NCBI GenBank assembly: GCA_020975725.1
Contig: QXJR01000009.1
Coordinates: 806,001-870,000 of the forward strand
Source of the DNA: Picocystis sp. L7
Lineage: Eukaryota; Chlorophyta; Picocystophyceae; Picocystales; Picocystaceae
DNA: 64,000 bases
Direction of reading: 5' to 3'
The notes under the pieces are model-generated. The model did not search any database. It saw only the letters and a list, made by a program, of their open reading frames with translations, and was not told the origin of the DNA. Both the position numbers and the translations under genes were made by a program. Below, piece after piece: positions 29,485 to 60,530 of the stretch (position 1 is its first letter; every line of letters starts with the position of its first letter).

Positions 29485-30218
29485 TGATGCTGCGACCAAC
29501 CCTCTCGAGACACCTGTCTTGCCGAGATTGTCCTTCGACGATGAGGAATATGCACTCCATCGCGAGGCTCCTGAGAGGTTCTCAATTACATTCCGGCCAT
29601 TTACTTGGGACTTGTTTGCCTCGCCAAAACATGCTCAATGTCCGGCCTTCTTTACACGGGAGACCCATGCTCTCGCCCAAGAATGGGCTAGTCTTGGCAA
29701 CCTATGGGCACACCCACCCTGTTGCCTCATTGACTCCGTGATGGGCAAGCTCGAGGCCCAACCTAGAGCCCTTGTGACCATGACCACTCCGCATTGACCA
29801 CAGGCTCCCTGGTTCCCTCGCTTGCAGCATCTCGCTACCGACCAGGAGGTACTAGGGAGGCATGAGGGAATATTCTCGGATGCCCGAGGAAGGACCTTGC
29901 CTTCCCCTCACTGGGACGTCCTCCTTAGCCATGTCCCTAGGCGGATGCAGGGCTAGGACTAACCCCGAATAGGGACCGGTTCGTCCCCCTTTCTACTGAG
30001 GGCTCCGTGGCCGATGAACCGGATAAATACGTGGCTTCGCCGCGGGCGGATTCCCCGATGGAGTTAAGATGTAATATCGATTGCGGCGGAGGGGAACGAG
30101 AAAAAAGAACAACGGTCACGACTATCGCTACAACACGAACGAGCGCGAGCGCACATCAATGTCACCATCATCGATGTTGGCTCGCAACTCAAGAAGGAGG
30201 TGGGCGCGTATGCGCCAT
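29485..30218 (+). repeat. Old solo LTR of a Ty3/gypsy element
   Basis: About 734 bp that match the 759-bp LTRs at 54682-55440 and 58057-58815 from the first bases to near the end, but with clearly more divergence, especially in the last 200 bp. No internal region adjoins it. I see no clear target duplication. It is older than the other two copies. Confidence 0.75.
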
Positions 30219-40376: not shown

Positions 40377-40481
40377 ACGTCGCCTACCAGCAAGTCACCG
40401 GACGAGGCTGATGGACGTGGGGGTGGGCGACGTCGTCGCTCTTCCGCGACGAGAGAACGAGAAACACGGGTTACTTGCTTC

Positions 40482-41207
40482 TGTTACGCAAGGTCACCCT
40501 ACCCCCATCGAGGGTAGCTCCAATTCAAAGGATAGACAGTAACAATTGCAGTGAAAAGTGGGGAGAGGCCTTCCCTTAGTGAGGACTGACCCGGCTCTGA
40601 GCCCAATACTCTCGACGGGACGGGAAGTCCCCCCAATCAAGACTGGGACTGAATGGACCAGCTTCAGGAACCCGGGTTCACCCCCCTTACTAATTGGGAA
40701 ACAGACCCGGGCTCAGTCGGGGCGAATCCCCCCCAAGTGGATCGAACGGTGGAATACCCTGGTGACCGGATAGGGTCGGCAACTACACAGCCCGAGGACC
40801 GTCCGATGGGGACGCGGGGGCCCACGTGGGCCCCCAACTACCTGTTGAGCGGATAAGGAGGGCAGTTTCCACCACTCGTTCTCCACGAGAGATCGAAAGA
40901 AGAAGGGGAGCAACCCACTTGCTAGAAGAGAACTTTGCTTGAGCCAGCAACCGGCTGTCCCCTTTCCCTCGTGAGCTTGGTGCGCCATTCTCTTCGGTCG
41001 CCAACTGCTCCGGACGACCAGCAAGAAGCTCTCCTACGACCCCAACCGAGAGGAACTCCTCACTTGAAAAGGAAAGCGAGAGAAGACCGGGAACTAGGGA
41101 CCTCCCAAGGCGCTCTACGACCCTTTTTCCTCCAACAACCGGACAAGGACAAGGTGCACAGGGAGAAAACGTGTGTGAAAAGTGTCCCTCACGGACGCTT
41201 GGTAACA
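40482..41207 (+). repeat. 5' LTR of the methyltransferase-bearing element
   Basis: 726 bp, TG...CA with TGTTAC/GTAACA termini. Repeated at 47517-48242 with an offset of exactly 7035 bp and no difference seen by eye. Confidence 0.95.
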
Positions 41208-41253
41208 CTGTCGAAGCCTAAGCTCCAGGTGTACTCTTTGAACGACCCGTAAC

Positions 41254-42510
41254 ATGGAGGAAGGTGACCCTGCCACCCGTATGGGTACACTTCGGAGGGA
41301 GCTTGAACAAGAAAAAGACCGAAGAAACGCTCTTGAAGTCCAGGTGGCTGAGCTCCAGCAACTCCTTGAAGAACTTCAAGCAACGAAGGCGAATGAAGCT
41401 GAGGATGGTGACGAAGAACCTCTTGGCGAGGAGGTACCCCAAGAAGACACGAGCATGGAAGAAGAGGGTGTTGTCATCCCATCAGAGAGAGAGGGCTTGC
41501 CACACCTCATTAGTGTATATGGCACAGCCTTACAAGACTCAAAAAATATATCCAAGGTGTCGTTGGAGAAGCCCGACAAGTTTACGGGCCTAGAGCTAGA
41601 GGACAGCCCCTACGCCCTCATGTATTGGTACCGAGACGTTCTTTGCTGGTGCCAAGCCTACGCCTTTAATAGGCCAATGGAACAACTGGTTCTTGCTATT
41701 AATCAAGCCTTGGCAGGTACCGCAAAGGCAATGGTGCAGAATCTGATAATGCGAGACCCAAGCGCGCTCTCGTCAGTGGAAGACCTGTATCGGTACTTGC
41801 GTCGAACCTTTCAAAACCAAGACCCCGGGCCGGAAGCGTGGCGGGAATTCCATACCACCCGAATGAAGCGAACAGAAAATGTCTTGCAATTTCTCAACAG
41901 ATTGGTGCAGTTGAGCTTTGTCGTTAACGCGAGCAGCTCACCTGTGTGTCGAACGCTTACAGAAAATGACATATCCGCTCGTCTTCAGCATGGTCTTCCA
42001 GGACATTTGCAAAGCGCTCTGTACAAACACCTGGACCATCTGATTGAAGTGGACAAAGCTCCTGACATGGAGCCTGGAAGTCTCGCCGCAATCATTTTCA
42101 AACTGGAGCGTGAGATAAACGAGCATGCGAAGAAGGACACTCGGCAACCAGTGAACAATTGGAAACCGCGTTCTACAGGTGGGCCCTTCAACCGAACATC
42201 GCGCTACCCAGCCTCGCAGTCACCAGCAGCAATGGCAGCTGCTCTACCTACAGCAAGGCCCAGCAATAGTGCTAAGGAGAGCTCTCCAGCAACACGGCAA
42301 CGCAAACGATTTGATGACCTGGATGAAAACCAGAAGACTTCCATCATCAGAGTGCAAACTCAGTTAGCGAACAAGCCCTTGGGTGCGAAGTTGACACAGG
42401 AAGAGCGAGACCTCTGCCTGTCACATGCCTTATGCTTGCGCTGCCGCCGATATGGTCACGACCAGGCGGCCTGCAAGATGGCATCTGTGATGGGTGCCCC
42501 AAAAAACTAG
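41254..42510 (+). CDS. Gag of the Ty3/gypsy element
   Basis: A 418-aa frame. It begins with a coiled-coil ([18 protein letters not shown]), has a central gag/capsid-like region (e.g. [20 protein letters not shown]), and ends with a zinc-knuckle-like block ([14 protein letters not shown]). It overlaps the pol frame by 79 nt in a different frame, as in gypsy elements that use programmed frameshifting. Confidence 0.85.
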
Positions 42511-45500
42511 TGGCGCTCCGTCCGGTAACTATAGTTACCGAGACGGAGCCGGGAGCGAAATCTGCAGCCGCCCCGGTTACCAAGAAAAGGGATCCCGTCT
42601 GCCTCCATTCACTCACTAACAACAGGCCTAGACATGAGTTCCTTGCTGCTGAGACTTATTTTGGGAAGAAGCCCAACAAAATCAGAACCCAAGCATACCT
42701 GGACACCCTAGCGAGTTATTGTTTCATCAGTGAACGACTCTTCGATACACTGCGGCAATCTGACCCACAGGGTCTGTCCTGGGGATACACTACACAGACT
42801 TACGAATACAGTGTGGCTGTGGGCGAGCAAGTCCACACTGCCCCAGTAATTCAGGCTTCATTTTCGATCGATGGGTTCCGAGCCCGCATCGAGTTTGGAG
42901 TGGCACCTCTGGAAACATTCGATTGTATTCTGGGTGCGACCTTCTGTCACAAGCATTTGAAAGCACTTGATTGGCAGAATCATCGAATGATTCTCTGCAA
43001 CAAAAATGGGACCAGTTTCTCAGTATATGGAGACCATCAGTTCCTCGCATCAAGGAAGCTGGACCTGATCGTTCCACGCAGTGAGGCTCGGAAAGCGGTG
43101 AAGCACCCTGGCTGTCTACTCTTAATGATACAGCCAATGGACACGACCCCTGAACTGGTCAGTGAAGAATCAGATTTTAGCGCTATGCGCAGCACAGTCA
43201 GCGACGAATGGCCACTAAGCGATAGCGATAAGGAAAGGCTGGATACTTTAGTGAACAAGCGATACAAGCATTTATTTGAACCTCGCACAGAGCTACCGCC
43301 TGAACGGGCACCGGGCGAGCTATTCAAAATCCAGTTGGTCGATGGCGCTACGCCACAGTACAGAAATTACTATCGCCTCTCCCCGCAACAACAGGCTGCC
43401 CTGAAAGAGCTAGTGGCTGAATATGTTGACGCTGGGAAGATGGACCTCTGTGCTGGGTCAAGCTGGGGAGCCCCAGTCATCCTGGTTCCTAAGAAGGACG
43501 GTGGCTGGCGTGTCGTGTTCGACTATCGTTTATTGAACAGTGTCACCGTCAAGGACAGGTACCCCCTCCCCAGAATTGATGACTATTTACAGAATCTCCG
43601 GGGTGCAAAATTCTTCTCCTCCCTGGATGCGCTGGACGGTTTCCATCAGGTGCGAATGGATCCTGCAGATATTGACAAAACAGCAGTTGTTACCCCGTTC
43701 GGGTCTTATGTATGGAAGGTTATGCCCATGGGGGCAGCCAACGCCCCAGCCATGTTTCAACGCATGATGAATAGGGTATTTGGGCATTTACTTTATCTGA
43801 AAGTATATATGGACGATATCTTGATACACTCCGAAACAGCAGAGCAGCACTTCAGCCACCTCGAGGAGTTCTTGGCCACCTGTGAGCACGCTGATATTCG
43901 GTTAAAAAGGTCAAAGTGCCACTTCTTTATGAGAAAACTGGAGTGGGTAGGATTCAGTATTAGGGACGGTCAGCTTGCTTGCACTGATCACTTACTGTCC
44001 AAGATACAGCAATTCCCCCGCCCCCGAACACAGCGCGAGAATATGGCCTTCCTTGGACTCTGCCAGTTTTACATGAGGTTCGTGCCTCACTATGCGGAGC
44101 TAGCGGCACCCCTCACTGAATTAAACCAGATTGCATTGAAGCATAATTTCGACGCTTACTGGAAGGCGCCGCAGGAACAATCCTATAAGGACCTGGTAAA
44201 AGCTTTAACCTCAGCGCCAGTACTTACGCTGTTTGATGAAGATCGGCCAATTAGGATCGAAACGGATGCATCTGATATTGGAATGGGTGCAGCCTTTATG
44301 CAGCAAGACAAGCAGGGCATGTGGCAACCGGTAGAATACTGGTCCAAGAAGTTCAACACGGCACAGCAGAACTACCATCCTGCTGAGAAAGAGACGTGTG
44401 CGATACTTTATGCACTGCAACATTGGAGGCACCTAGTATTTGGGCAGCAGTTTACTGTCGTCACCGACAATAAAGCTAGCCAGTTCATTGGGACAAAAGC
44501 GACCGAACAGCTCTCACCTCGCGAGATGCGATGGGTCGAAAAGCTGGCCTATTTCGCACCGTTTACGATCGAGTACAGGCCAGGCAAGGAGAATGTAGGC
44601 CCAGATTACCTTTCTCGACATTCAGCGAAAGTCAGCGGTGGCGAGACATACTGCATCTTAGACCTTTGCGCTGGCATGGGCACAACCTTGCGGGCGCTGG
44701 AGCTGGTGATACCGGAAGCTGCCCACATCACGATAGATTACATAGCAGTGGAGAAAGATAAGGACTGCCGTAGCGTAATTTCACGTGTGTTCCACCAAGT
44801 CCGCCTAGCCCGTCCTGGATTGTTCACACGTAAGGACATCTTCCGTTACGGCAACGATGTTACCACTCTAGTACATCGACGGAAACTCCCCCACGCGCAT
44901 CTGATTATTGCTGGGGTGCCCTGCCAACCATTTTCGAAGGCAAACACGGATTTTACCAGGCCCCCGTTAGGCCTGTATGATACCCGAGAGCTCTTTACAG
45001 CAGTGGCTAAGCTTCGCGAGCGTTTACGGTCACCTGATTTTATACTGGAATGCACTCCGTTTGCCCCTCATCTGGCGTCCCACTTGGAGACAGTTGCAGA
45101 ATGGTTTGGGGAGCCCCAACGCGAGGACCTGTCAGCGTATTGTGCACAGTCTCGACTACGACTGTGTTGGACATCATTACCAGCTTCTACACCGCAGATC
45201 AGCCTACTCGAACGACTTTCGATGACCTGGCAAGACTGCCTGGATGCTGGCTCACGAGTGCCGCTGGACGCATTCGATCAACCCCGCCTGAAATGCCCCA
45301 CCTTGATGGCTAGCGCACGATCCCACAGTGATCGCTCGCGTTCCACATGGGTGCATGATCTGGAGGGAGCATTGCGCCCGCTTACGATAACTGAGCGGGA
45401 GCGACTCGTCGGTATGCAAGCTGGGGACACTGCTGCACTTCACGTCAGCGAACCCAGTCGGCAGCGCATGTGTGGCAATGCATTCCCAGTGGGATGGATT

Positions 45501-47489
45501 GCGCACATGCTACACCGATGGATGAACCACACACGGACGCTTCGACCGCTAGCTAGCCGCAGTCCTGCGGGGACTGTGTGTGGATCAATCGCGTCTTTAA
45601 CAGATCAACATCCCGATCGAACATCCTTGACAGGACAGACCAATGAGCCGCCGCCTATACTCGACCGTATACGAGTTGCCGCTGAAGCTGATCCACAGTA
45701 CCAGAGGCTGTTGAGGTCACCCCCAGAGAAATCAACAGTACGCGATGGCCTCCTTTTTGAGGTCTCGACTAATGCTCAACCAGTCCTGGTCGTTCCATCG
45801 GACAATTCCTTGAGACAGGAGTTGTTGCATATGATACACGACCAGCGACACTTTGGATCTGCGCGAACGTTCGCAGATGCCAAGCGTCACTTCACATGGA
45901 CAGGCATCCGATCGCACATCGATCACTTTGTTTCACGTTGTCCTGTGTGTCAGCTTCAGAAACCTGGGAACCGGTCACGACTTGTGCCGTTATGTCCAGA
46001 ATTCAGATTCTACCCTTATCCATTCCACACGGTGGTGCTGGACGTGGTAGAAAACTTGCCCCTCACATCGCTAGGGCATAATGCAGTGCTAACTATTGTG
46101 GACAAATTTACGAAGTTCGCAATCTATATACCAATTCATTCAACTTGGAGTGCTCATCGACAAGCACAATGCATAATGGATGGCCTGGTGTACAAATACC
46201 ATACACCTGTGCATATACATACTGACAATGGCCCAGCTTATCGGGCCCTCTTCCAAGCTTTCTGCAGAGCCTTAGGAGTCAGGCATGTCACAGGGACACC
46301 ATACCACTCTCAGTCACAGGGTGGGGCAGAAAGGCAGCATCGCACACTTCTGCAGACGCTGCGTACAACGTGCGCTGAAAAACATCAGTGGGACCAGTAC
46401 TTGCAAGCTGCTGCGCATGCGTATAACGATACGGTGCACACTGTCACTCAGCACTCTCCTTTCGAGTTACTTTTTGGCTGCCCAGCCAGACTACCATGGC
46501 ATCTGCAACTGCCCACATGTGAAGGACTGGAGCAGAATCAAACCATTACCACCTTCGATAAGCGGGTCACAGCCTTGTTAGCCAAGCACCGTACGGTGTA
46601 TCAGGCCGTGCAGGACAATCTGGTCACGGCCGCCGACCAGATCGCTAAAGCTACAGCACATCGACCCAAGAAAGCCTTCGCTGTCGGAGACAAAGTAAAG
46701 GTCCAGTACGGCCTCAAAGGACCCACAGACAAACATAAATTGGATCCATATTTTGTGGGGCCCTACATAATCAAACAGGTGCTGAAAAACGGATCATACC
46801 AACTGGACTTACCACCGGGCTCTGCCTTTTCAGATCGCATACATGGCAACAGATTGGAACCTTGGGTGGACTCAGACTTGACACTATTCCCAATGGATGA
46901 ACACAGGCAGCCCGCTATAACACCCTTGCAAGATACAGCAGCCATGCAGCTTGAAGCTGCATCATACCGCATCAGAAGATACTTGCTCCGCGATTACTCC
47001 GCATTCCCTACATTGCCTGTTAAGTACTGGATTGAGAGCAATTTGACTGACGCTTCGCAACGATACTTCTGGGTGGATGAGTCCTCTCCCCTACTTGAGG
47101 AATTCTTACCGCTGGAAGAAAACAACGGGTGTATCCCTGAGAAGGGCATCACACCAGCAAACTATGAAGCCGTCAGGACACACAAAAAGACAACCTATCT
47201 GCAGTCGCCAGCTCCCATCATGATCAACACCTGGCCCTTCAACAAGTTACCATACGAGACAAGACGACGACCCCAACTGCCAGCGCCCTCAGACCTAGTA
47301 GGCTGCGTGATACAAGAATTGTTCCACTTGGAGGACAGGCCAGTGTACTATCAGGGCCTCGTCCAGGAAAAGGAAGGGGACCTTTTTGAAGTCTTATGGA
47401 CAGATGGAAAGACCGATTACTACCTCGAACATCAGGTTCGATCAATGATTTATGACCCAGTAGCCTACATATACGACTTCCAGGCATAG
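42432..47489 (+). CDS. Pol of the Ty3/gypsy element: protease, RT, RNase H, DNA methyltransferase, integrase
   Basis: A 1685-aa frame. Reverse transcriptase lies at about residues 280-530 (YMDDILIHS near 458) and RNase H at about 605-730. A C5 DNA methyltransferase occupies about 740-1030, recognised by the motif-I segment [14 protein letters not shown], the PCQ segment [26 protein letters not shown] and a C-terminal [13 protein letters not shown]. Integrase follows at about 1070-1330 with its His/Cys zinc-binding start and HTDNGPAY, then a GPY/F-like module and about 200 further residues. The order of the methyltransferase segments resembles the DNMT3 type. That tail is shared with the other gypsy family in this window. 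Confidence 0.92.
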
Positions 47490-47516
47490 AGCCCTCGAAG
47501 TCTGAAGCCGGGAGAG

Positions 47517-48242
47517 TGTTACGCAAGGTCACCCTACCCCCATCGAGGGTAGCTCCAATTCAAAGGATAGACAGTAACAATTGCAGTGAAAAGTGGGGAG
47601 AGGCCTTCCCTTAGTGAGGACTGACCCGGCTCTGAGCCCAATACTCTCGACGGGACGGGAAGTCCCCCCAATCAAGACTGGGACTGAATGGACCAGCTTC
47701 AGGAACCCGGGTTCACCCCCCTTACTAATTGGGAAACAGACCCGGGCTCAGTCGGGGCGAATCCCCCCCAAGTGGATCGAACGGTGGAATACCCTGGTGA
47801 CCGGATAGGGTCGGCAACTACACAGCCCGAGGACCGTCCGATGGGGACGCGGGGGCCCACGTGGGCCCCCAACTACCTGTTGAGCGGATAAGGAGGGCAG
47901 TTTCCACCACTCGTTCTCCACGAGAGATCGAAAGAAGAAGGGGAGCAACCCACTTGCTAGAAGAGAACTTTGCTTGAGCCAGCAACCGGCTGTCCCCTTT
48001 CCCTCGTGAGCTTGGTGCGCCATTCTCTTCGGTCGCCAACTGCTCCGGACGACCAGCAAGAAGCTCTCCTACGACCCCAACCGAGAGGAACTCCTCACTT
48101 GAAAAGGAAAGCGAGAGAAGACCGGGAACTAGGGACCTCCCAAGGCGCTCTACGACCCTTTTTCCTCCAACAACCGGACAAGGACAAGGTGCACAGGGAG
48201 AAAACGTGTGTGAAAAGTGTCCCTCACGGACGCTTGGTAACA
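47517..48242 (+). repeat. 3' LTR of the methyltransferase-bearing element
   Basis: Same 726 bp as 40482-41207. A purine-rich run precedes it. The 4-bp CTTC that follows (48243-48246) repeats the four bases before the 5' LTR. Confidence 0.95.
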
Positions 48243-48782
48243 CTTCCGTGAGGAGCTGAAGGTCATGCGCCGAGAAAGAGTGTACGACCGCGCAATGAGG
48301 GAGTACGAGGTGCAATCGAGATTGTTCCGCAAGAATCCGGTTCGCTTCCCGGAGCCACTGCCACTGGAAGAATACGTTGGGTGGCACTTGAAAGGACATT
48401 CCACCATCACGACTTCTTTGACGTACGAGTGTTCGACGCACATCGATGAAGTCGAAGTTGAAGTCGAGTCTCCAAACAAGGAGCGAAGTGGAAAAGACCA
48501 GTAGTAGGTTGTAAATGTAATCGGCTTGCATCTAGTACTACAAATGTTTTGAAATCAATGTAATAGTTGCTTCTTCTCAATGAATGCGTTTGACAGGACT
48601 TCTCTTGTCCACTTCCAAGAGTACAACTCCCATGCCCATTTGCAACTGATGGTTCTTGCAGTTGGTCCCCACAGTGATGGCTGCCCAAGCCTTGCAGTAG
48701 CTCCTACTTCCAAATAAAGACTGATGCTGATGAAAAGAAGGAATGCCGTTCATAGATTTGCTGTTGCTGAAAAGAAGGAATG
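48243..48782 (+). other. Transposon sequence resuming after the retroelement
   Basis: An open frame at 48265-48504 (RRERVYDRAMREYEVQSRLF region) ends with a charged tail. It is probably the downstream part of a gene in the Harbinger-like element. Near the right edge a sequence around GGAATGCCGTTCATAGATTT appears that recurs just beyond the solo LTR. Confidence 0.4.
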
Positions 48783-50354: not shown

Positions 50355-51504
50355 CTACCTACCGGTTTGACGCAGTATGATTGAACGTCTCGTTTTGTCG
50401 CCCACGAGCGGCCAGAGCTGACCGATTTTCCCAAGCATCCATTCCACTGTTTGCCGGAATGAACTCATCTCCTCGTTGAAGGCCGCCTCACTTGCACTGA
50501 GGGCTCCGCGGTTTAACTCGATGCGGCCTATGAATGACACTCGAGAGGGAGTAGGCAGCGTCTCCATAGACGCTTATCGTACTTCCCAATCTGATGCTCA
50601 TTGCTCGAAGCCGATCCTCCACGTTCGATTGATGCAAGATGTTCCCGTCTCCACCCGAGCTTTCATGTGGACCATCGTAGTCCCAAATCAAGAAAGTGGC
50701 CAGGAACAAAGCTTGGTATTTCGTTGCGTGCATCCTCGTCCAACCATTATACGTTGCATCCTCTCCTTCCGTCGGTCTTCAAATCTTGAAGATCGTTCCA
50801 TCGATGAACCCGCAGCATGTGGGGATAAGGCACCCTTGCTGATGCAACTCCTGCGCCAATCGCGGGAGCTCATCCTCCCACACCTCCAATCGCAAAGCTC
50901 GCTTGGCATACGGATAGACGTGGTCGAGCATGGCATTATGCAACTCCAAGATCGCGGTTGGCAAGCGAACGAATGTTGCACTGAGGTGGTATAGGTTTTC
51001 CAAACCTGCGAGGCGTCGCAGCATCACCAACATTCCCTCCTTGCCGGTGAGGACCCTTCGAGATCCCGGCACTCGGATGATGGGAGGTACAAGGAGGATC
51101 CTCATGAGCTCCCGTATCTCCCAACCGACGAAGCGACAATGCTGTCGCAACCACTCATCGTCGAAGTTGGCGATTGGGCGCGGGATGTTCCCTACCACTC
51201 TGGCGAAGTTGAAACGGCGCTCCGCCTCCCTCAAGTCCTCCAAGCAGTCGTCCATGGCTTGGACGATCATTTCAAGTATGACGACAACGTCATCTCGATA
51301 TTCCTGGAATTGGGTGAACTCCACAAAGAGTTCCGACAGCTCGTCGAACTCTTCGCGGAGCTCCCTTCGCTCCAGTGCGCTCCCCATCCTCGAGGGCATG
51401 TCCGCGATCGAATCGTCGACTTCCCGCCGATCGGTTTTGGAACCACGAGGACGAGCCCCTCCGAGGACGTAAACCCTGTTGCACCAATTTTCCTCGAAGG
51501 CCAT
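50355..51504 (-). pseudogene. PIF/Harbinger-type transposase, broken
   Basis: Reads on the minus strand from the ATG at 51504. The N-terminal part is a helical region (EEFDELSELFVEFTQFQEYR, then FVGWEIRELMRILLVPP). The DDE domain begins with CCGFIDGTIFKI, continues with GWTRMHATKYQALFLATF and ISVYGDAAYSLSS, and ends with SSFRQTVEWMLGKIGQLW, as in DDE_4 transposases of the Harbinger superfamily. A TGA directly after FKI interrupts the frame near 50779, and the frame shifts again near 50490-50560, so no intact transposase is encoded. It converges with the accessory gene at the other end of the element. Confidence 0.75.
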
Positions 51505-51622
51505 GGTTAAATGCGATGGGTTAATCGACAAATCATTCTCCTGTCCCCCCGGGTTCGACAGATGGGGTAGGGCCGAAAACCATTCTGGTGCAACTCAGGG
51601 GCCTCGAGTTGCTCGAAAATGA

Positions 51623-53754: not shown

Positions 53755-54681
53755 CTAACAGTTCTTCCGCAGTGCCTCTTGCAAACTCATCACTTGCTGA
53801 ATTGCCTCATCTGCAGTTGGTCGAGGCCCAATGTAGCTCGTGATGAATTCAAGTGGGATGCACTGTGCTGCCAAGAAAGCAAGACGTTCATCCCAACTTC
53901 TCTGGATCTTCATAGCTCTGTCAAGAATGAGAGCCTCTCGATCATTGGTCTGAAGCTTGGCCTGAAAGTCTGTGATAGATTTTGTAACATGTGTTACAAT
54001 TTCTTGCACCGTACTTGACTGTTCCATCATGATTGAGACCACCTGGTCGTGCCTTCGGTCTGCGTTGCTAGGACGCCTGCCCTTTGGCATTGGCGGTGCG
54101 GCCTTACGAACGGGCGATGATGCTTCGTCTGGGCGAGTGGACTTCTTCTTACTGTAATCAATACCATCTTTTGCAGCAGTAGGAGAATTCTCGTACACCT
54201 TGCACTGCACGTCTCCAGATTTGCCGTCCATGCACACTTGTGAAGGTCCGTCGGTGCATGAAACATACTTGGTCGAAGGCGTGCAATTCTGTAGTATGAC
54301 TTGCGAAGGTGGACACACTGATGCCCTGTGTAGCATTGCTTGCTGCATGATGTCGAAGAACTGCCACTCAACTTCGTCGAGTTGAGCCTCTCCTGTGCAA
54401 TTCGCACGTTTCTTCACAACCTTCCCACAGTCGTCGAGGACTGTGACTGTCCCTCGCTTCTTTTCCTTGAAGACCTCCTAGAGGTACTTCCACTTCTCCG
54501 TGGCCTTTATTTTGAAGACCTCCTTGAGGTACGCATCGGCATCGATGTTGTGCTCGTCGCAGAAGTTGCGGAAGTCATGACCTCCCGTGACGAACCACGG
54601 TGCAAGCGCGCCCAGCTTGTCACACATTGCACGCCGCACCATTTGCCATCCACTTTCCATGTGCTTGCCTCGTGCAATATC
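53755..54681 (-). pseudogene. Accessory gene of the second Harbinger-like element, probable
   Basis: On the minus strand, 54417-53755 encodes 220 aa of protein-like sequence (e.g. SKKKSTRPDEASSPVRKAA, then DREALILDRAMKIQRSWDER). Upstream, 54681-54478 encodes GHDFRNFCDEHNIDADAYL before a TAG stop; the two parts are separated by a short duplicated GAGGTCTTCAA. No family recognised. Its place opposite a Harbinger transposase suggests the accessory DNA-binding gene. It is cut at 54682 by an LTR. Confidence 0.45.
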
Positions 54682-55440
54682 TGTGGCACTTGGGCACCCA
54701 CCTCCTTCTCCCTTGATGAGCCGGCGGCGCTCGTGGTGGCATCGGCGTGCGTTCGCGCTCGTTCGCTTGTGCGTTTGTGTCGCCGCGGCGCTCGAGACCG
54801 TTAGGCTGAACGTCGAGAAACGTTGTTCTCGTTCCCCTCCGCCGCAATCGATATTACATCTTAACTCCATCGGGGAATCCGCCCGCGGCGAAGCCACGTA
54901 TTTATCCGGTTCATCGGCCACGGAGCCCTCAGTAGAAAGGGGGACGAACCGGTCCCTATTCGGGGCTAGTCCTAGCCCTGCATCCGCCTAGGGACATGGC
55001 TAAGGAGGACGTCCCAGTGAGGGGAAGGCAAGGTCCTTCCTCGGGCATCCGAGAATATTCCCTCATGCCTCCCTAGTACCTCCTGGTCGGTAGCGAGATA
55101 CTGCAAGCGAGGGAACCAGGGAGCCTGTGGTCAATGCGGAGTGGTCATGGTCACAAGGGCTCTAGGTTGGGCCTCGAGCTTGCCCATCACGAAGTCAATG
55201 AGGCAATAGGGTGGGTGTGCCCATAGGTTGCCAAGACTAGCTCAATCTTGGGCGAGAGCATGGGTCTCCCGTGTAAAGAAGGCCGGACATTGGGCATGGT
55301 TTGGCGAGGCAAACAAGTCCCAAGTAAATGGCCCGAGTATAATTGAGAACCTCTCAGGAGCCTCACGATGGAGTGCATATTCCTCATCGTCGAAGGACAA
55401 CCTCGGCAAGACAAGTGTCGCGAGAGAGTTGGTCGCAACA
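54682..55440 (-). repeat. Ty3/gypsy LTR, minus orientation
   Basis: 759 bp, the same length as the LTR at 58057-58815 and nearly identical to it apart from a cluster of differences in the first 30 bp. Its 5' end abuts the C-terminal half of a piggyBac-like transposase, its 3' end abuts the second Harbinger-like element. It lacks matching flanks of its own; its partner appears to be the LTR at 58057. Confidence 0.88.
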
Positions 55441-57002: not shown

Positions 57003-58815
57003 GGATTTACACACTAAGAGAGAAAGCAGACCCTGCGTGCAAGCGACTCCATTCGCTGTTTGACGCTCGCCGAGAGCTCTACGCTCAAGTGCAAAAACGA
57101 CACGCCCTCTATCAACAACAAGTTGAAGATAGATTGAACCGCCAAAGGCAGGTTCGACGCTTTCGCGTCGGGGATAAAGTCAAACTGCAACGCGGTATGA
57201 AGTCCTCCAGGGACAAAGGAAAGCTCGAGAGCTACTTTGTAGGGCCGTACACCATTGGGGAGGTGTTACCAAAGGGAGCTTACCGCTTGGTTCTACCTGA
57301 CGGCACTCGACATTCCGCCACAGTCAATATCGAACGACTGCATCCCTGGCATGAGAGCGAACATTCAAAGTTCCCCCATCGCGAACTTACTCCTGAACCT
57401 CAAACGGTTCCTCTCCCAAATGGATTAGAGGATACTCGTATCCAAGTGGAGCGCTTCTACATACGTGATTGGACCACTTTTCCACCTAGGTACTATGTCC
57501 AATTTGCTTGTAGCGCTGATGCCCCTCTTCACGAACATCGCGGGTATGTAGAGGAAACGTCGGATCTCATTGACCACGTTTGTGAGATCGAGGAACTCCT
57601 CGGGCATTTCCCCGAGCAAGGCATCACCGCACGTAACAAGAGTCGCGTGTCTCGCTACAAGTCCAAATTTTATCACCAGAAGAGGCCCATCCTAAAGGAT
57701 ACGTGGCCGTACGCTCTGCCATACACTAGCCTAAGGAAACCGCGCTTTGCGAAACCGCCAAGTACGAACTTGGTTGGGCAAGTCGTGCAAGCAAGGTTCT
57801 TGCTCGAGCTCATGGACGGCTCAACTCGCCTAGAGTTTTGGACTGGCCTTGTGGAACGCTTTCGAAAAGCGGCGAAATCTTCTCCCGCTGCTTACGTCAT
57901 CCGGTGGACGGACGGGACTACTTCCTCCTACCGTCCCGATGACGCACACACGATCCTATTTGATCCCGTGGCGGCCGTGTACGGCCAAGCTTCCCTCGTC
58001 TCGCCAGAGCCACTCGACGATCGGGCTGAGTTGCGCTTAATGGTGGTCCGGGAGGGTGTTGCGCCCAGCCCTCTCGAGACACCTGTCTTGCCGAGGTTGT
58101 CCTTCGACGATGAGGAATATGCACTCCATCGCGAGGCTCCTGAGAGGTTCTCAATTATACTCGGGCCATTTACTTGGGACTTGTTTGCCTCGCCAAACCA
58201 TGCCCAATGTCCGGCCTTCTTTACACGGGAGACCCATGCTCTCGCCCAAGATTGAGCTAGTCTTGGCAACCTATGGGCACACCCACCCTATTGCCTCATT
58301 GACTTCGTGATGGGCAAGCTCGAGGCCCAACCTAGAGCCCTTGTGACCATGACCACTCCGCATTGACCACAGGCTCCCTGGTTCCCTCGCTTGCAGTATC
58401 TCGCTACCGACCAGGAGGTACTAGGGAGGCATGAGGGAATATTCTCGGATGCCCGAGGAAGGACCTTGCCTTCCCCTCACTGGGACGTCCTCCTTAGCCA
58501 TGTCCCTAGGCGGATGCAGGGCTAGGACTAGCCCCGAATAGGGACCGGTTCGTCCCCCTTTCTACTGAGGGCTCCGTGGCCGATGAACCGGATAAATACG
58601 TGGCTTCGCCGCGGGCGGATTCCCCGATGGAGTTAAGATGTAATATCGATTGCGGCGGAGGGGAACGAGAACAACGTTTCTCGACGTTCAGCCTAACGGT
58701 CTCGAGCGCCGCGGCGACACAAACGCACAAGCGAACGAGCGCGAACGCACGCCGATGCCACCACGAGCGCCGCCGGCTCATCAAGGGAGAAGGAGGTGGG
58801 TGCCCAAGCGCCACA
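57003..58815 (+). mobile_element. 3' part of a Ty3/gypsy element: integrase C terminus to 3' LTR
   Basis: A partial element. The frame at 57089-58255 encodes the integrase end with a GPY/F-type module (FRVGDKVKLQRGMKSSRDKG) and a long tail clearly related to the tail of the methyltransferase-bearing element (e.g. WTDGTTSSY and LFDPVAAVYG versus WTDGKTDYY and [10 protein letters not shown]). The frame runs into the LTR. The 5' internal region is absent; the 5' LTR is probably the inverted copy at 54682-55440. LTR similarity suggests a fairly young insertion. The element is broken by truncation and rearrangement. Confidence 0.85.
58057..58815 (+). repeat. 3' LTR of the partial Ty3/gypsy element
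   Basis: 759 bp beginning TGTTGCG and ending GCCACA. The piggyBac N-terminal half begins directly after it. Confidence 0.88.
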
Positions 58816-60530
58816 GAGTGTAATGCCGGGACGCATGTGCATTCCATGCATTCTAGAACCAGCGCAGTTCCCAATGAGAATCACTCTGCAGCGTATGTAG
58901 GGTGCCTTTGGGTCCCTTGCAAGCTCCAGCTTGCTTAGGCTTGTCCTCTCTCGCTCCTCGCTTCGTTGTGTATTTTGGGACACTACTTGCCAATAGTTAT
59001 TGGAGGCGGGCAAAGTCCCTTCTGCACAGGATCTTGTTCCGGTTGAAGTGGACCGCCAATGGGTCCTTCTCCACATCACTCACTTGCTAGAAGGCCTTCC
59101 TGCTATGCCGAGGGTGCAAGAACATGCACATGAAGACCCAACACGCTCAACAACATACCAGGTGTACACTCTCTGTCGTAAGACAAGAAAGTGTCACCTC
59201 GTCTCTTGTACTTGCTTCGACCACGCCCGGTAATCTCAACAATCCAATCATGCAACAATTCGTACGCAGAGAAGCGTAGGAAATACTGCAATGCTTCCGT
59301 CTCATGGAACGGCTCTGGTAGGTACGAGCAAGGTGAGCGATAGCCTCGCTGCTTGTCCATGACCCCACTGGTTGCATGTGAATCGACCATCACGTGCGCC
59401 TGCTCCTCCTCCCACACCACTCCAAAATCACTCCCAACAACTTTGTTGGCGTCGACGCCATCTCCAAGCGGGTCCAAGCATTCCTCGTGGAGCGTTGCGC
59501 ACTCCTGGACGTCAAGAAGGCCTCCTCGGGTGGTAACTCCGAGGATGGAGGTACCAAGTCGTCTTTCCCACCCGCATCCGTTCCAGTGGGTCTTTCTTCC
59601 TCCATGGCCGCGCGGTGCGGTTCTTCTTCCGGTGGATGCTCCACAACCGTGTAACGCCTTACCGTTTCCTCGGTGACCTGCCATGCCTCCGTCGAGGTGC
59701 CCGACATGTCGCAGCTAACAATGGTCTCTTGCTCTCCTGTACGTAAACTGTAACGGCCAGCGAGGCCTGCCAGGGTCCCTACGAGACCCTGGCCTACGGG
59801 ACTAGACCCCCGGGACCCCATATGGATGAGGGGCAATGGTATCCCCTCTCAAACAACGGCTGTACCGTTCCGGAACTGGAGTCAGTCCCCTTGGGAGTTC
59901 GTATTGAAGGAAGGTCGCCCCGGTTCAGAACGGGTTTTCTGTAAGGGACATCGAGGATTTAGACCGAAACAGACCGACTGAAGGGGACCGACCACATCGT
60001 TACCTTCGCTTCTGGAAGGTAGGGTTGGGAGCTGGACGGTGTCGATGCGACTGCCAGCTCACGTTCGCCCCGGGGCGAACGCAACGGACGGTCAGATGTG
60101 ACTCTAGGGAGCACGTGGGCTGCCATGACGCCCCAGTTGCCCCAATTCCAACCGCGAGTGAGAGGCGGTGAGAGAGGTAGACCCTTGGTCCCTCTTTGCT
60201 TTGTGATACACTTCTTCTACTTGCCAAGCCAAGTGCGCAACACGCCTCCTCCTCCGACCCTGACCAACGCGACAGGAGACACCACCTGGACGCTCCAGCT
60301 CGTCCGTTCTCGCCTCCCACGCCGGCCGAGGCTCCTTCAACGCAAGGGAGAAGAGAGAGAGAGAAGAAGACCCCGGGACAAGGGGTGAGAAGCCCGTCCT
60401 CCACGAGACCCTCGTCACCAAGAGTACGTGTGTTGGGTCATTCAACCACGGACGCAAGTCTAGTAGTAAACGCATCAGGCGGAGCACCATGCCGTCATAC
60501 CACGTGTCGCTCCACGCCTCCCCATGCACT
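58816..60530 (-). mobile_element. N-terminal half of a piggyBac-like DNA transposon
   Basis: Read on the minus strand. From about 60530 (GEAWSDTWYDGMVLRLM) through 59.84-59.10 kb (GEQETIVSCDMSGTSTEAWQ, then SDFGVVWEEEQ and ALQYFLRFSAYELLHDWIVE, the piggyBac N-terminal block) to 58816 next to the LTR. The sequence continues at 55441 on the opposite strand. A solo LTR (59749-60465) interrupts it. Frame changes in 58.9-59.4 kb show the gene is decayed. Confidence 0.65.
59749..60465 (+). repeat. Solo LTR inserted in the piggyBac N-terminal half
   Basis: About 717 bp beginning TGTAACGG. GTAAAC occurs directly before (59743-59748) and directly after (60466-60471), the likely target duplication. 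Its end (ACCACGGACGC, then a GTAG run) resembles the ends of the LTRs at 40482 and 48783, so it is a third related family. The exact 3' border may be off by one or two bases. Confidence 0.65.

What the first reader, a model, noticed from the sequence alone, without database searches (positions are those of the whole stretch)
44650..45540. DNA methyltransferase built into a young, whole-looking Ty3/gypsy element
A C5 cytosine methyltransferase of about 290 residues sits in frame between RNase H and integrase of a retroelement with apparently identical LTRs. Retroelement-borne methyltransferases are known from dinoflagellates and charophytes and have been proposed to self-methylate new copies. 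This copy looks recent, so it may be an active example, and it offers a case to compare with published families.
Basis: partly seen in the sequence, partly recalled or inferred. Interest (0 to 1): 0.88.

Follow-up and report, generated by a model that had tools for sequence, protein, structure and literature searches.

The report
Jumping gene carrying a DNA-methylating enzyme
A green alga's genome holds a young, intact-looking LTR retrotransposon whose polymerase protein has a DNA-methylating enzyme built in, a combination described before in dinoflagellates and a charophyte alga.

Summary
Window 40482-48242 is a Ty3/gypsy element: identical LTRs (728/728 bases), a 4-bp target duplication, gag, and a 1,685-codon pol with a C5-cytosine methyltransferase (44646-45542) in frame between RNase H and integrase. 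It is not a one-off: 133 matches to the domain were listed in this 20.5-Mb genome, and 110 of 114 scored reverse-transcriptase relatives have it next door. Catalytic residues are kept almost without exception in 72 domains; selection is purifying (median dN/dS 0.10, against 0.44 for the neighbouring linker). By profile the domain is Dnmt3-like, but phage-type enzymes match it better, so its donor is open. The host is a chlorophyte; published cases are dinoflagellates and the charophyte Klebsormidium. Another gypsy group in the genome lacks this enzyme and carries a Dam adenine-methyltransferase domain inside its LTRs; no element I read carries both. Self-methylation is not shown, and CpG depletion does not support it, because copia elements with no such enzyme listed nearby are more depleted. 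Likely role (inferred): Pol-delivered methylation of the new DNA copy or its insertion site. New variant of a known kind.

The parts
40478..40481 (.). target-site duplication CTTC, left copy
   Evidence: read
40482..41207 (+). 5' LTR (TGTTAC...GTAACA)
   Evidence: identical to the 3' LTR; the identical block runs to 41209
41254..42510 (+). gag ORF, 418 aa
   Evidence: only sub-threshold gag matches (Retrotrans_gag E 0.04)
42501..42507 (+). A AAA AAC heptamer directly before the gag stop, in phase for a -1 shift into pol
   Evidence: the same in copy L067, absent in L068
42432..47489 (+). pol ORF, 1,685 aa: protease-like, RT, RNase H, methyltransferase, integrase, C-terminal part
   Evidence: protease matches below cut-off; frame open for 1,720 codons
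43485..44555 (+). RT and RNase H region used as genome query
44646..45542 (+). C5-cytosine methyltransferase domain (299 aa), motifs I, IV, VI, VIII, X present
45801..46310 (+). integrase H2C2 zinc domain and core (pol residues 1124-1293)
47517..48242 (+). 3' LTR
   Evidence: the identical block runs to 48244
48243..48246 (.). target-site duplication CTTC, right copy
   Evidence: read

Best explanation
This is a recently inserted, structurally whole Ty3/gypsy LTR retrotransposon of a chlorophyte alga. Its Pol polyprotein carries a Dnmt3-like C5-cytosine methyltransferase with intact catalytic residues between RNase H and integrase. Gag and Pol are probably made by a -1 frameshift at A AAA AAC. 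The methyltransferase would therefore travel in the particle with RT and integrase (inferred) and methylate the reverse-transcribed DNA or chromatin at the new site (inferred). Shown: architecture, copy number, conserved catalytic residues, purifying selection, co-inheritance with RT. Not shown: enzyme activity, target sequence, any effect on transposition or silencing.
For: Architecture and LTRs. 133 genome matches, 55 with an open frame of at least 1,600 codons and no stop in the match. 110 of 114 scored RT relatives have the domain adjacent. Among 72 aligned domains the motif IV Cys is kept in 72, the motif VI Glu in 70 (one gap; one with Glu shifted a column in ENV) and the motif VIII Arg in 71. 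Median dN/dS: domain 0.096 (20 pairs), RT-RNase H 0.018 (21), integrase 0.041 (20), linker 0.443 (119). RT and methyltransferase trees agree in their supported subgroups. The profile scores DNMT3A at 59.9 bits, HhaI 40.3, DNMT2 32.7, DRM2 31.8, DNMT1 24.9. The frameshift heptamer is in this copy and in L067.
Against: Constraint is weaker than on RT or integrase. The 20-21 pairs come from a few clusters and are not independent. A gypsy group without the domain is abundant in the same genome, so it is not needed for transposition as such. CpG depletion is not greatest in its carriers. L068 lacks the heptamer. No expression or methylation data are held.
Confidence: 0.6

Rival explanations
1. The enzyme acts outward, on host chromatin, rival elements or the insertion neighbourhood, rather than on the element's own cDNA, for example to imitate a host mark or to steer integration.
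For: The host has its own DNMT1-like, CMT-like and DNMT2 genes, so cytosine methylation probably exists. Carriers are less CpG-depleted than copia.
Against: No targeting data; concentration on two contigs has other possible causes.
Confidence: 0.2
2. The domain is now a structural or passenger part of Pol whose catalysis no longer matters.
For: Weaker constraint than RT or integrase; another gypsy group lacks it.
Against: Catalytic residues almost never change across domains down to 28% identity; dN/dS far below the linker's.
Confidence: 0.12
3. The donor was a phage or viral C5 methyltransferase rather than a host Dnmt3.
For: Profile scores: P0041 87.8 bits and P0043 73.3 against a DNMT3A fragment 57.6; PHROG 116 E 4.6e-18.
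Against: P0041 and P0043 were picked as best of 5.8 billion sequences. In the small tree DNMT3A groups with those two (81/89) and the retroelement set stands apart, so the donor is unresolved. Sixteen ORFs from IMG/VR scored 31-58 bits.
Confidence: 0.3
4. The methyltransferase is an assembly or annotation artefact, or sits in this one copy only.
For: None found.
Against: Copies on many contigs (167 places on 25 contigs, host genes included) and public proteins with the same domain content.
Confidence: 0.01

Closest known systems
KnitGypsy-Dnmt3 of Klebsormidium nitens (PMC5890265)
   Same: Dnmt3-related C5 methyltransferase inside the Pol ORF of a gypsy-type element, key residues kept, purifying selection (parts 1-3 of 7 read).
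   Different: The paper's legend gives it DIRS-like repeats; this element has ordinary direct LTRs and a target duplication. The host is a chlorophyte, not a charophyte. I had no sequence of it, so common descent is untested.
SymbioDIRS-Dnmt3 and SymbioLINE-Dnmt of Symbiodinium (PMC5890265)
   Same: Retroelements carrying C5 methyltransferases; SymbioDIRS domains were shown to methylate CG de novo in yeast.
   Different: DIRS with tyrosine recombinase, and LINE; this one has an rve-type integrase and LTRs.
Dam-bearing DIRS elements (PMC6338049, passages)
   Same: Retroelement-borne DNA methyltransferase.
   Different: Adenine chemistry and DIRS class; relevant to the other group, L070, not to this element.
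Orchid Ty3/gypsy with m6A demethylase (PMC9289625, search listing and abstract start only)
   Same: Nucleic-acid-modifying domain captured by Ty3/gypsy.
   Different: Demethylase acting on RNA.

Membership tests
Ty3/gypsy LTR retrotransposon | direct LTRs with short target duplication | tested here: met
   728/728 identical, CTTC duplication
Ty3/gypsy LTR retrotransposon | Pol order RT, RNase H, rve-type integrase | tested here: met
Ty3/gypsy LTR retrotransposon | tRNA primer binding site after the 5' LTR | tested here: inconclusive
   no TGG start seen by eye just after the LTR, 41206-41235; no tRNA gene in the window to compare
C5-cytosine DNA methyltransferase | motifs I, IV (PC), VI (E), VIII (RxR), X (GN) | tested here: met
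C5-cytosine DNA methyltransferase | methyl transfer to cytosine | not testable with these tools
   needs bench assay
C5-cytosine DNA methyltransferase | class I methyltransferase fold | not tested
Dnmt3 family | closest to Dnmt3 among C5 methyltransferases | tested here: inconclusive
   best PDB profile matches are DNMT3A/B, but two metagenome enzymes score higher and the small tree keeps retroelement domains as a separate group, 96/98; DNMT5, DNMT6 and algal Dnmt3 not included
KnitGypsy-Dnmt3 | sequence relationship to the K. nitens element | not tested
KnitGypsy-Dnmt3 | DIRS-like repeat arrangement | tested here: not met
   ordinary direct LTRs; description

The most novel reading that the evidence does not exclude
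In one chlorophyte genome, two gypsy groups carry two different DNA-methylation chemistries, one a C5-cytosine methyltransferase in Pol, the other a Dam adenine methyltransferase encoded in its LTRs. They are alternative solutions to the same need: marking new copies or their surroundings. The C5 group is ancient and present in metagenomes.
Probability: 0.35. Interest if true: 0.85.

Novelty: new variant of a known kind. Interest (0 to 1): 0.62.

Why it matters
It extends retroelement-borne cytosine methyltransferases to a chlorophyte and to an element with ordinary LTRs, in a small genome with many copies, several of them with nearly identical LTRs. That makes the self-methylation idea testable by long reads. 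The contrast with a Dam-bearing gypsy group in the same nucleus is a natural comparison that the published cases, as far as I read them, do not offer.

Tried and rejected
CpG depletion as evidence of self-methylation. Whole elements first looked telling: 0.75, 0.77, 0.72 and 0.77 for four carriers against 0.99 for L070 and 0.92 for host sequence. Carriers are also modestly below 11 host genes (CpG across codon boundaries 0.74 against 0.88, p 0.002; eleven subfamily representatives p 0.03) and below two Dam-group stretches. But five copia fragments gave a median CpG ratio of 0.48, against 0.81 for 49 carrier stretches, 0.85 for the host genes and 0.97 for the Dam group, so the signal is not specific. 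The nearest listed methyltransferase match to those copia fragments is 74 kb or more away; the copia elements themselves were not read whole. A 2025 paper also reports CpG-rich, highly methylated prasinophytes (PMC12695648, passages).

C-to-T excess between close copies: CG 0.044 and CHG 0.034 against CHH 0.021, but C before T is also high at 0.036. Per-pair CpG tests were mostly weak (ratio 1.5-1.7, p 0.016-0.36 for five pairs; none in L068's LTRs; 2.0 and 1.4 for two relics of the Dam group). Compatible with host methylation, not specific.

A vestigial methyltransferase in L070's 208-aa segment: suspected by eye, rejected as unsupported (-1.2 bits against a shuffle maximum of 5.2).

Loss of the domain in L070: its RT falls inside the carriers in the best tree, but the alternatives are not rejected (p-AU 0.33 and 0.30). 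The first RT tree used a mixture model whose branch lengths ran away; I replaced it with LG+G4.

One element with both enzymes: 7 of 168 methyltransferase matches have a same-strand Dam match within an element's span. I read two of the seven; both are Dam-group LTRs inserted into a carrier (L095, L096). Five were not read.

Host naming: the RF01960 search did not complete.

Rows dropped: domains covering under 250 profile positions, and four duplicate copies (76 to 72). In one search, of L001-L030 only frames open throughout, less three duplicates, plus W, L066, L067 and L068: 20 rows. In one search no viral-contig ORF met my full-length rule, so none entered the tree.

Full report
What is there. 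The window lies in a 20.5-Mb, 30-contig genome at C7:806001-870000. Window 40482-48242 is an LTR retrotransposon. Its two LTR blocks are identical over 728 bases. Trimmed to TG...CA they are 726 bases, flanked by a CTTC duplication (read). A 418-aa gag ORF (41254-42510) overlaps a 1,685-aa pol ORF (42432-47489) in the -1 frame. The heptamer A AAA AAC lies in gag phase directly before the gag stop, both here and in copy L067, though not in the distant copy L068; L066 has no intact gag frame. That the heptamer works as a frameshift site is inferred. Pol has RT, RNase H, a C5-cytosine methyltransferase, the H2C2 zinc domain and an integrase core, in that order.

The methyltransferase. Pfam reaches only its first part (E 8.4e-8). 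Aligned over 72 domains from this genome and public proteins, the motif IV cysteine is kept in 72, the motif VI glutamate in 70 and the motif VIII arginine in 71. One miss is a truncated row; the other has ENV shifted by a column. Most rows were chosen by similarity, so this is not an unbiased sample. The single sequence matches DNMT3A at only E 6e-4. A profile of 19 domains scores DNMT3A 59.9 bits, HhaI 40.3, DNMT2 32.7, DRM2 31.8 and DNMT1 24.9. PHROG 116, a phage methyltransferase family, matches at E 4.6e-18. Two metagenome enzymes, P0041 and P0043, outscore a DNMT3A fragment; sixteen viral-contig ORFs score 31-58 bits. In a small tree of 17 rows the ten retroelement domains form one group (96/98), apart from the host DNMT1-like, CMT-like and DNMT2 proteins and from DNMT3A plus the two metagenome enzymes. 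So the domain is a C5 methyltransferase with Dnmt3-like make-up, it is not a recent copy of those three host enzymes, and its donor is open.

Copies. The domain query gave 133 matches (132 of 188 candidates scored). Of these, 55 have an open frame of at least 1,600 codons with no stop in the match, and 16 have a stop in the match. Merged with a Pfam search (121 matches, 123 of 177 candidates scored) there are 167 places, at least five of them pieces of four host genes. Of 114 scored RT relatives (227 candidates), 110 have the domain just downstream. Of the four without, the one I read (L069) breaks off inside the domain. Copy L067 has LTRs differing at 1 of 732 bases and L068 at 1 of 660, with 4- and 5-base duplications; L066 has 96.3% identity and no duplication. 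Several subfamilies have therefore inserted recently. No rate is known, so no age in years is given.

Selection and descent. With dS between 0.1 and 1.5, median dN/dS is 0.018 for RT-RNase H (21 pairs), 0.041 for integrase (20), 0.096 for the methyltransferase (20) and 0.443 for the linker beyond it (119). The pairs are few and not independent. Between this element and the close copy L066 the values are higher: 0.29 for RT, 0.35 for integrase, 0.37 for the methyltransferase and 0.53 for the linker. RT and methyltransferase trees share their supported subgroups, so the domain has travelled with the polymerase. A search limited to Pol-sized proteins found 20 public relatives at 30-95% identity. 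All have precomputed RT and RNase H domains; P0019 lacks a DNA_methylase call and P0001, which is short, an integrase-core call. The 95% hit is labelled Pavlova lutheri in EukProt.

Host. Its light-harvesting protein scores best with two multi-unit LHCI chains of one PDB entry and next with chlorophyll a/b LHCII proteins of green algae and plants. A conserved WD40 protein from the window falls on the chlorophyte side of a branch with SH-aLRT 99, outside the named chlorophytes (88) and next to two unnamed metagenome sequences. One gene and a quick tree: chlorophyte is well supported, the class is not. The haptophyte label in EukProt therefore probably marks a mixed or mislabelled assembly (inferred).

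A second group. Of 150 scored RNase H hits (204 candidates), 119 have a methyltransferase listed downstream and 31 do not. One of the 31, when read, does have it (L072), so 119 is a lower bound. Twenty-two of the 31 lie between two Dam (PF05869) matches about 8.1 kb apart, and no RNase H hit with a listed methyltransferase lies in such a pair. There are 23 such pairs among 101 Dam matches. In L070 the Dam stretch (1752-2006) lies within the block 1314-2081, which recurs without the rest of the element in this window and inside carriers. The Dam coding sequence is therefore in the LTRs, at the end of a 2,669-codon open gag-pol frame. Seven of 168 methyltransferase matches have a Dam match within an element's span; the two I read are Dam-group LTRs inserted into carriers, the other five were not read. 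The RT of L070 is 47-53% identical to the carriers nearest this element and 30-42% to the four more distant ones, but its exact place is unresolved.

Function. The published work showed that one retroelement class methylates CG in yeast and proposed self-methylation (PMC5890265). Here I found no support for that specific step: copia fragments are more CpG-depleted than the carriers. What stands is an enzyme with intact catalytic residues kept by selection inside Pol. Packaging with RT and integrase, and action on the new DNA or its site, is the most likely use but is inferred.

Known or new. I read parts 1-3 of 7 of PMC5890265 plus passages, and passages of PMC12344493, which names retroelement DNMT3 as reported in streptophytes and dinoflagellates. 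PMC6338049 (passages) says that Dam- or C5-bearing Ty3/gypsy and DIRS elements occur in several groups including green algae, without details in what I saw, so a chlorophyte case may not be wholly unreported. Searches listed no paper that by title or abstract start describes such an element in a chlorophyte; only open-licence papers are searched. I call it a new variant of a known kind.

Noticed in passing
L070:1314-2081 and window 54681-55440, 57014-58816, 29488-30117: A gypsy group whose LTRs contain coding sequence for a Dam adenine-methyltransferase domain (PF05869, E 1.1e-11); 23 pairs of Dam matches about 8.1 kb apart among 101; relics lie in this window.
   Followed up: partly
genome contigs C3 and C4: 71 of 168 methyltransferase matches sit on these two contigs, 29.8 per Mb against 5.3 elsewhere (capped lists): possible outlier or low-recombination chromosomes.
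   Followed up: no
L031, L032, L033, L034: Host C5 methyltransferase genes: two-BAH DNMT1-like, DNMT2, BAH-chromo CMT-like, and one with a C-terminal PWWP domain that matched no PDB chain at E 0.001.
   Followed up: partly
genome-wide, e.g. L090-L094: Copia elements are abundant (150 scored of 167 candidates); five RT fragments are strongly CpG-depleted, median 0.48.
   Followed up: partly
P0001, P0021 and other EukProt hits: Close relatives are labelled Pavlova lutheri, a haptophyte, though the host genes here are green-algal.
   Followed up: no
P0019, P0020: Public gypsy Pol proteins with more distant C5 methyltransferases (32% and 30% identity) in the same position and a classical ENV motif.
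   Followed up: partly
L095:876-1640 and L096:1416-1901: Dam-group LTRs inserted into methyltransferase-bearing elements; C12 and C13 carriers have the Dam match at the same offset.
   Followed up: partly
window 50779-51531 (-): ORF that by eye resembles a Harbinger-type transposase; recalled resemblance, no search made.
   Followed up: no
L068 pol C-terminus: Weak Tudor-like match (PF21743, E 2e-4, below cut-off) at the end of Pol in the second methyltransferase-bearing group.
   Followed up: no
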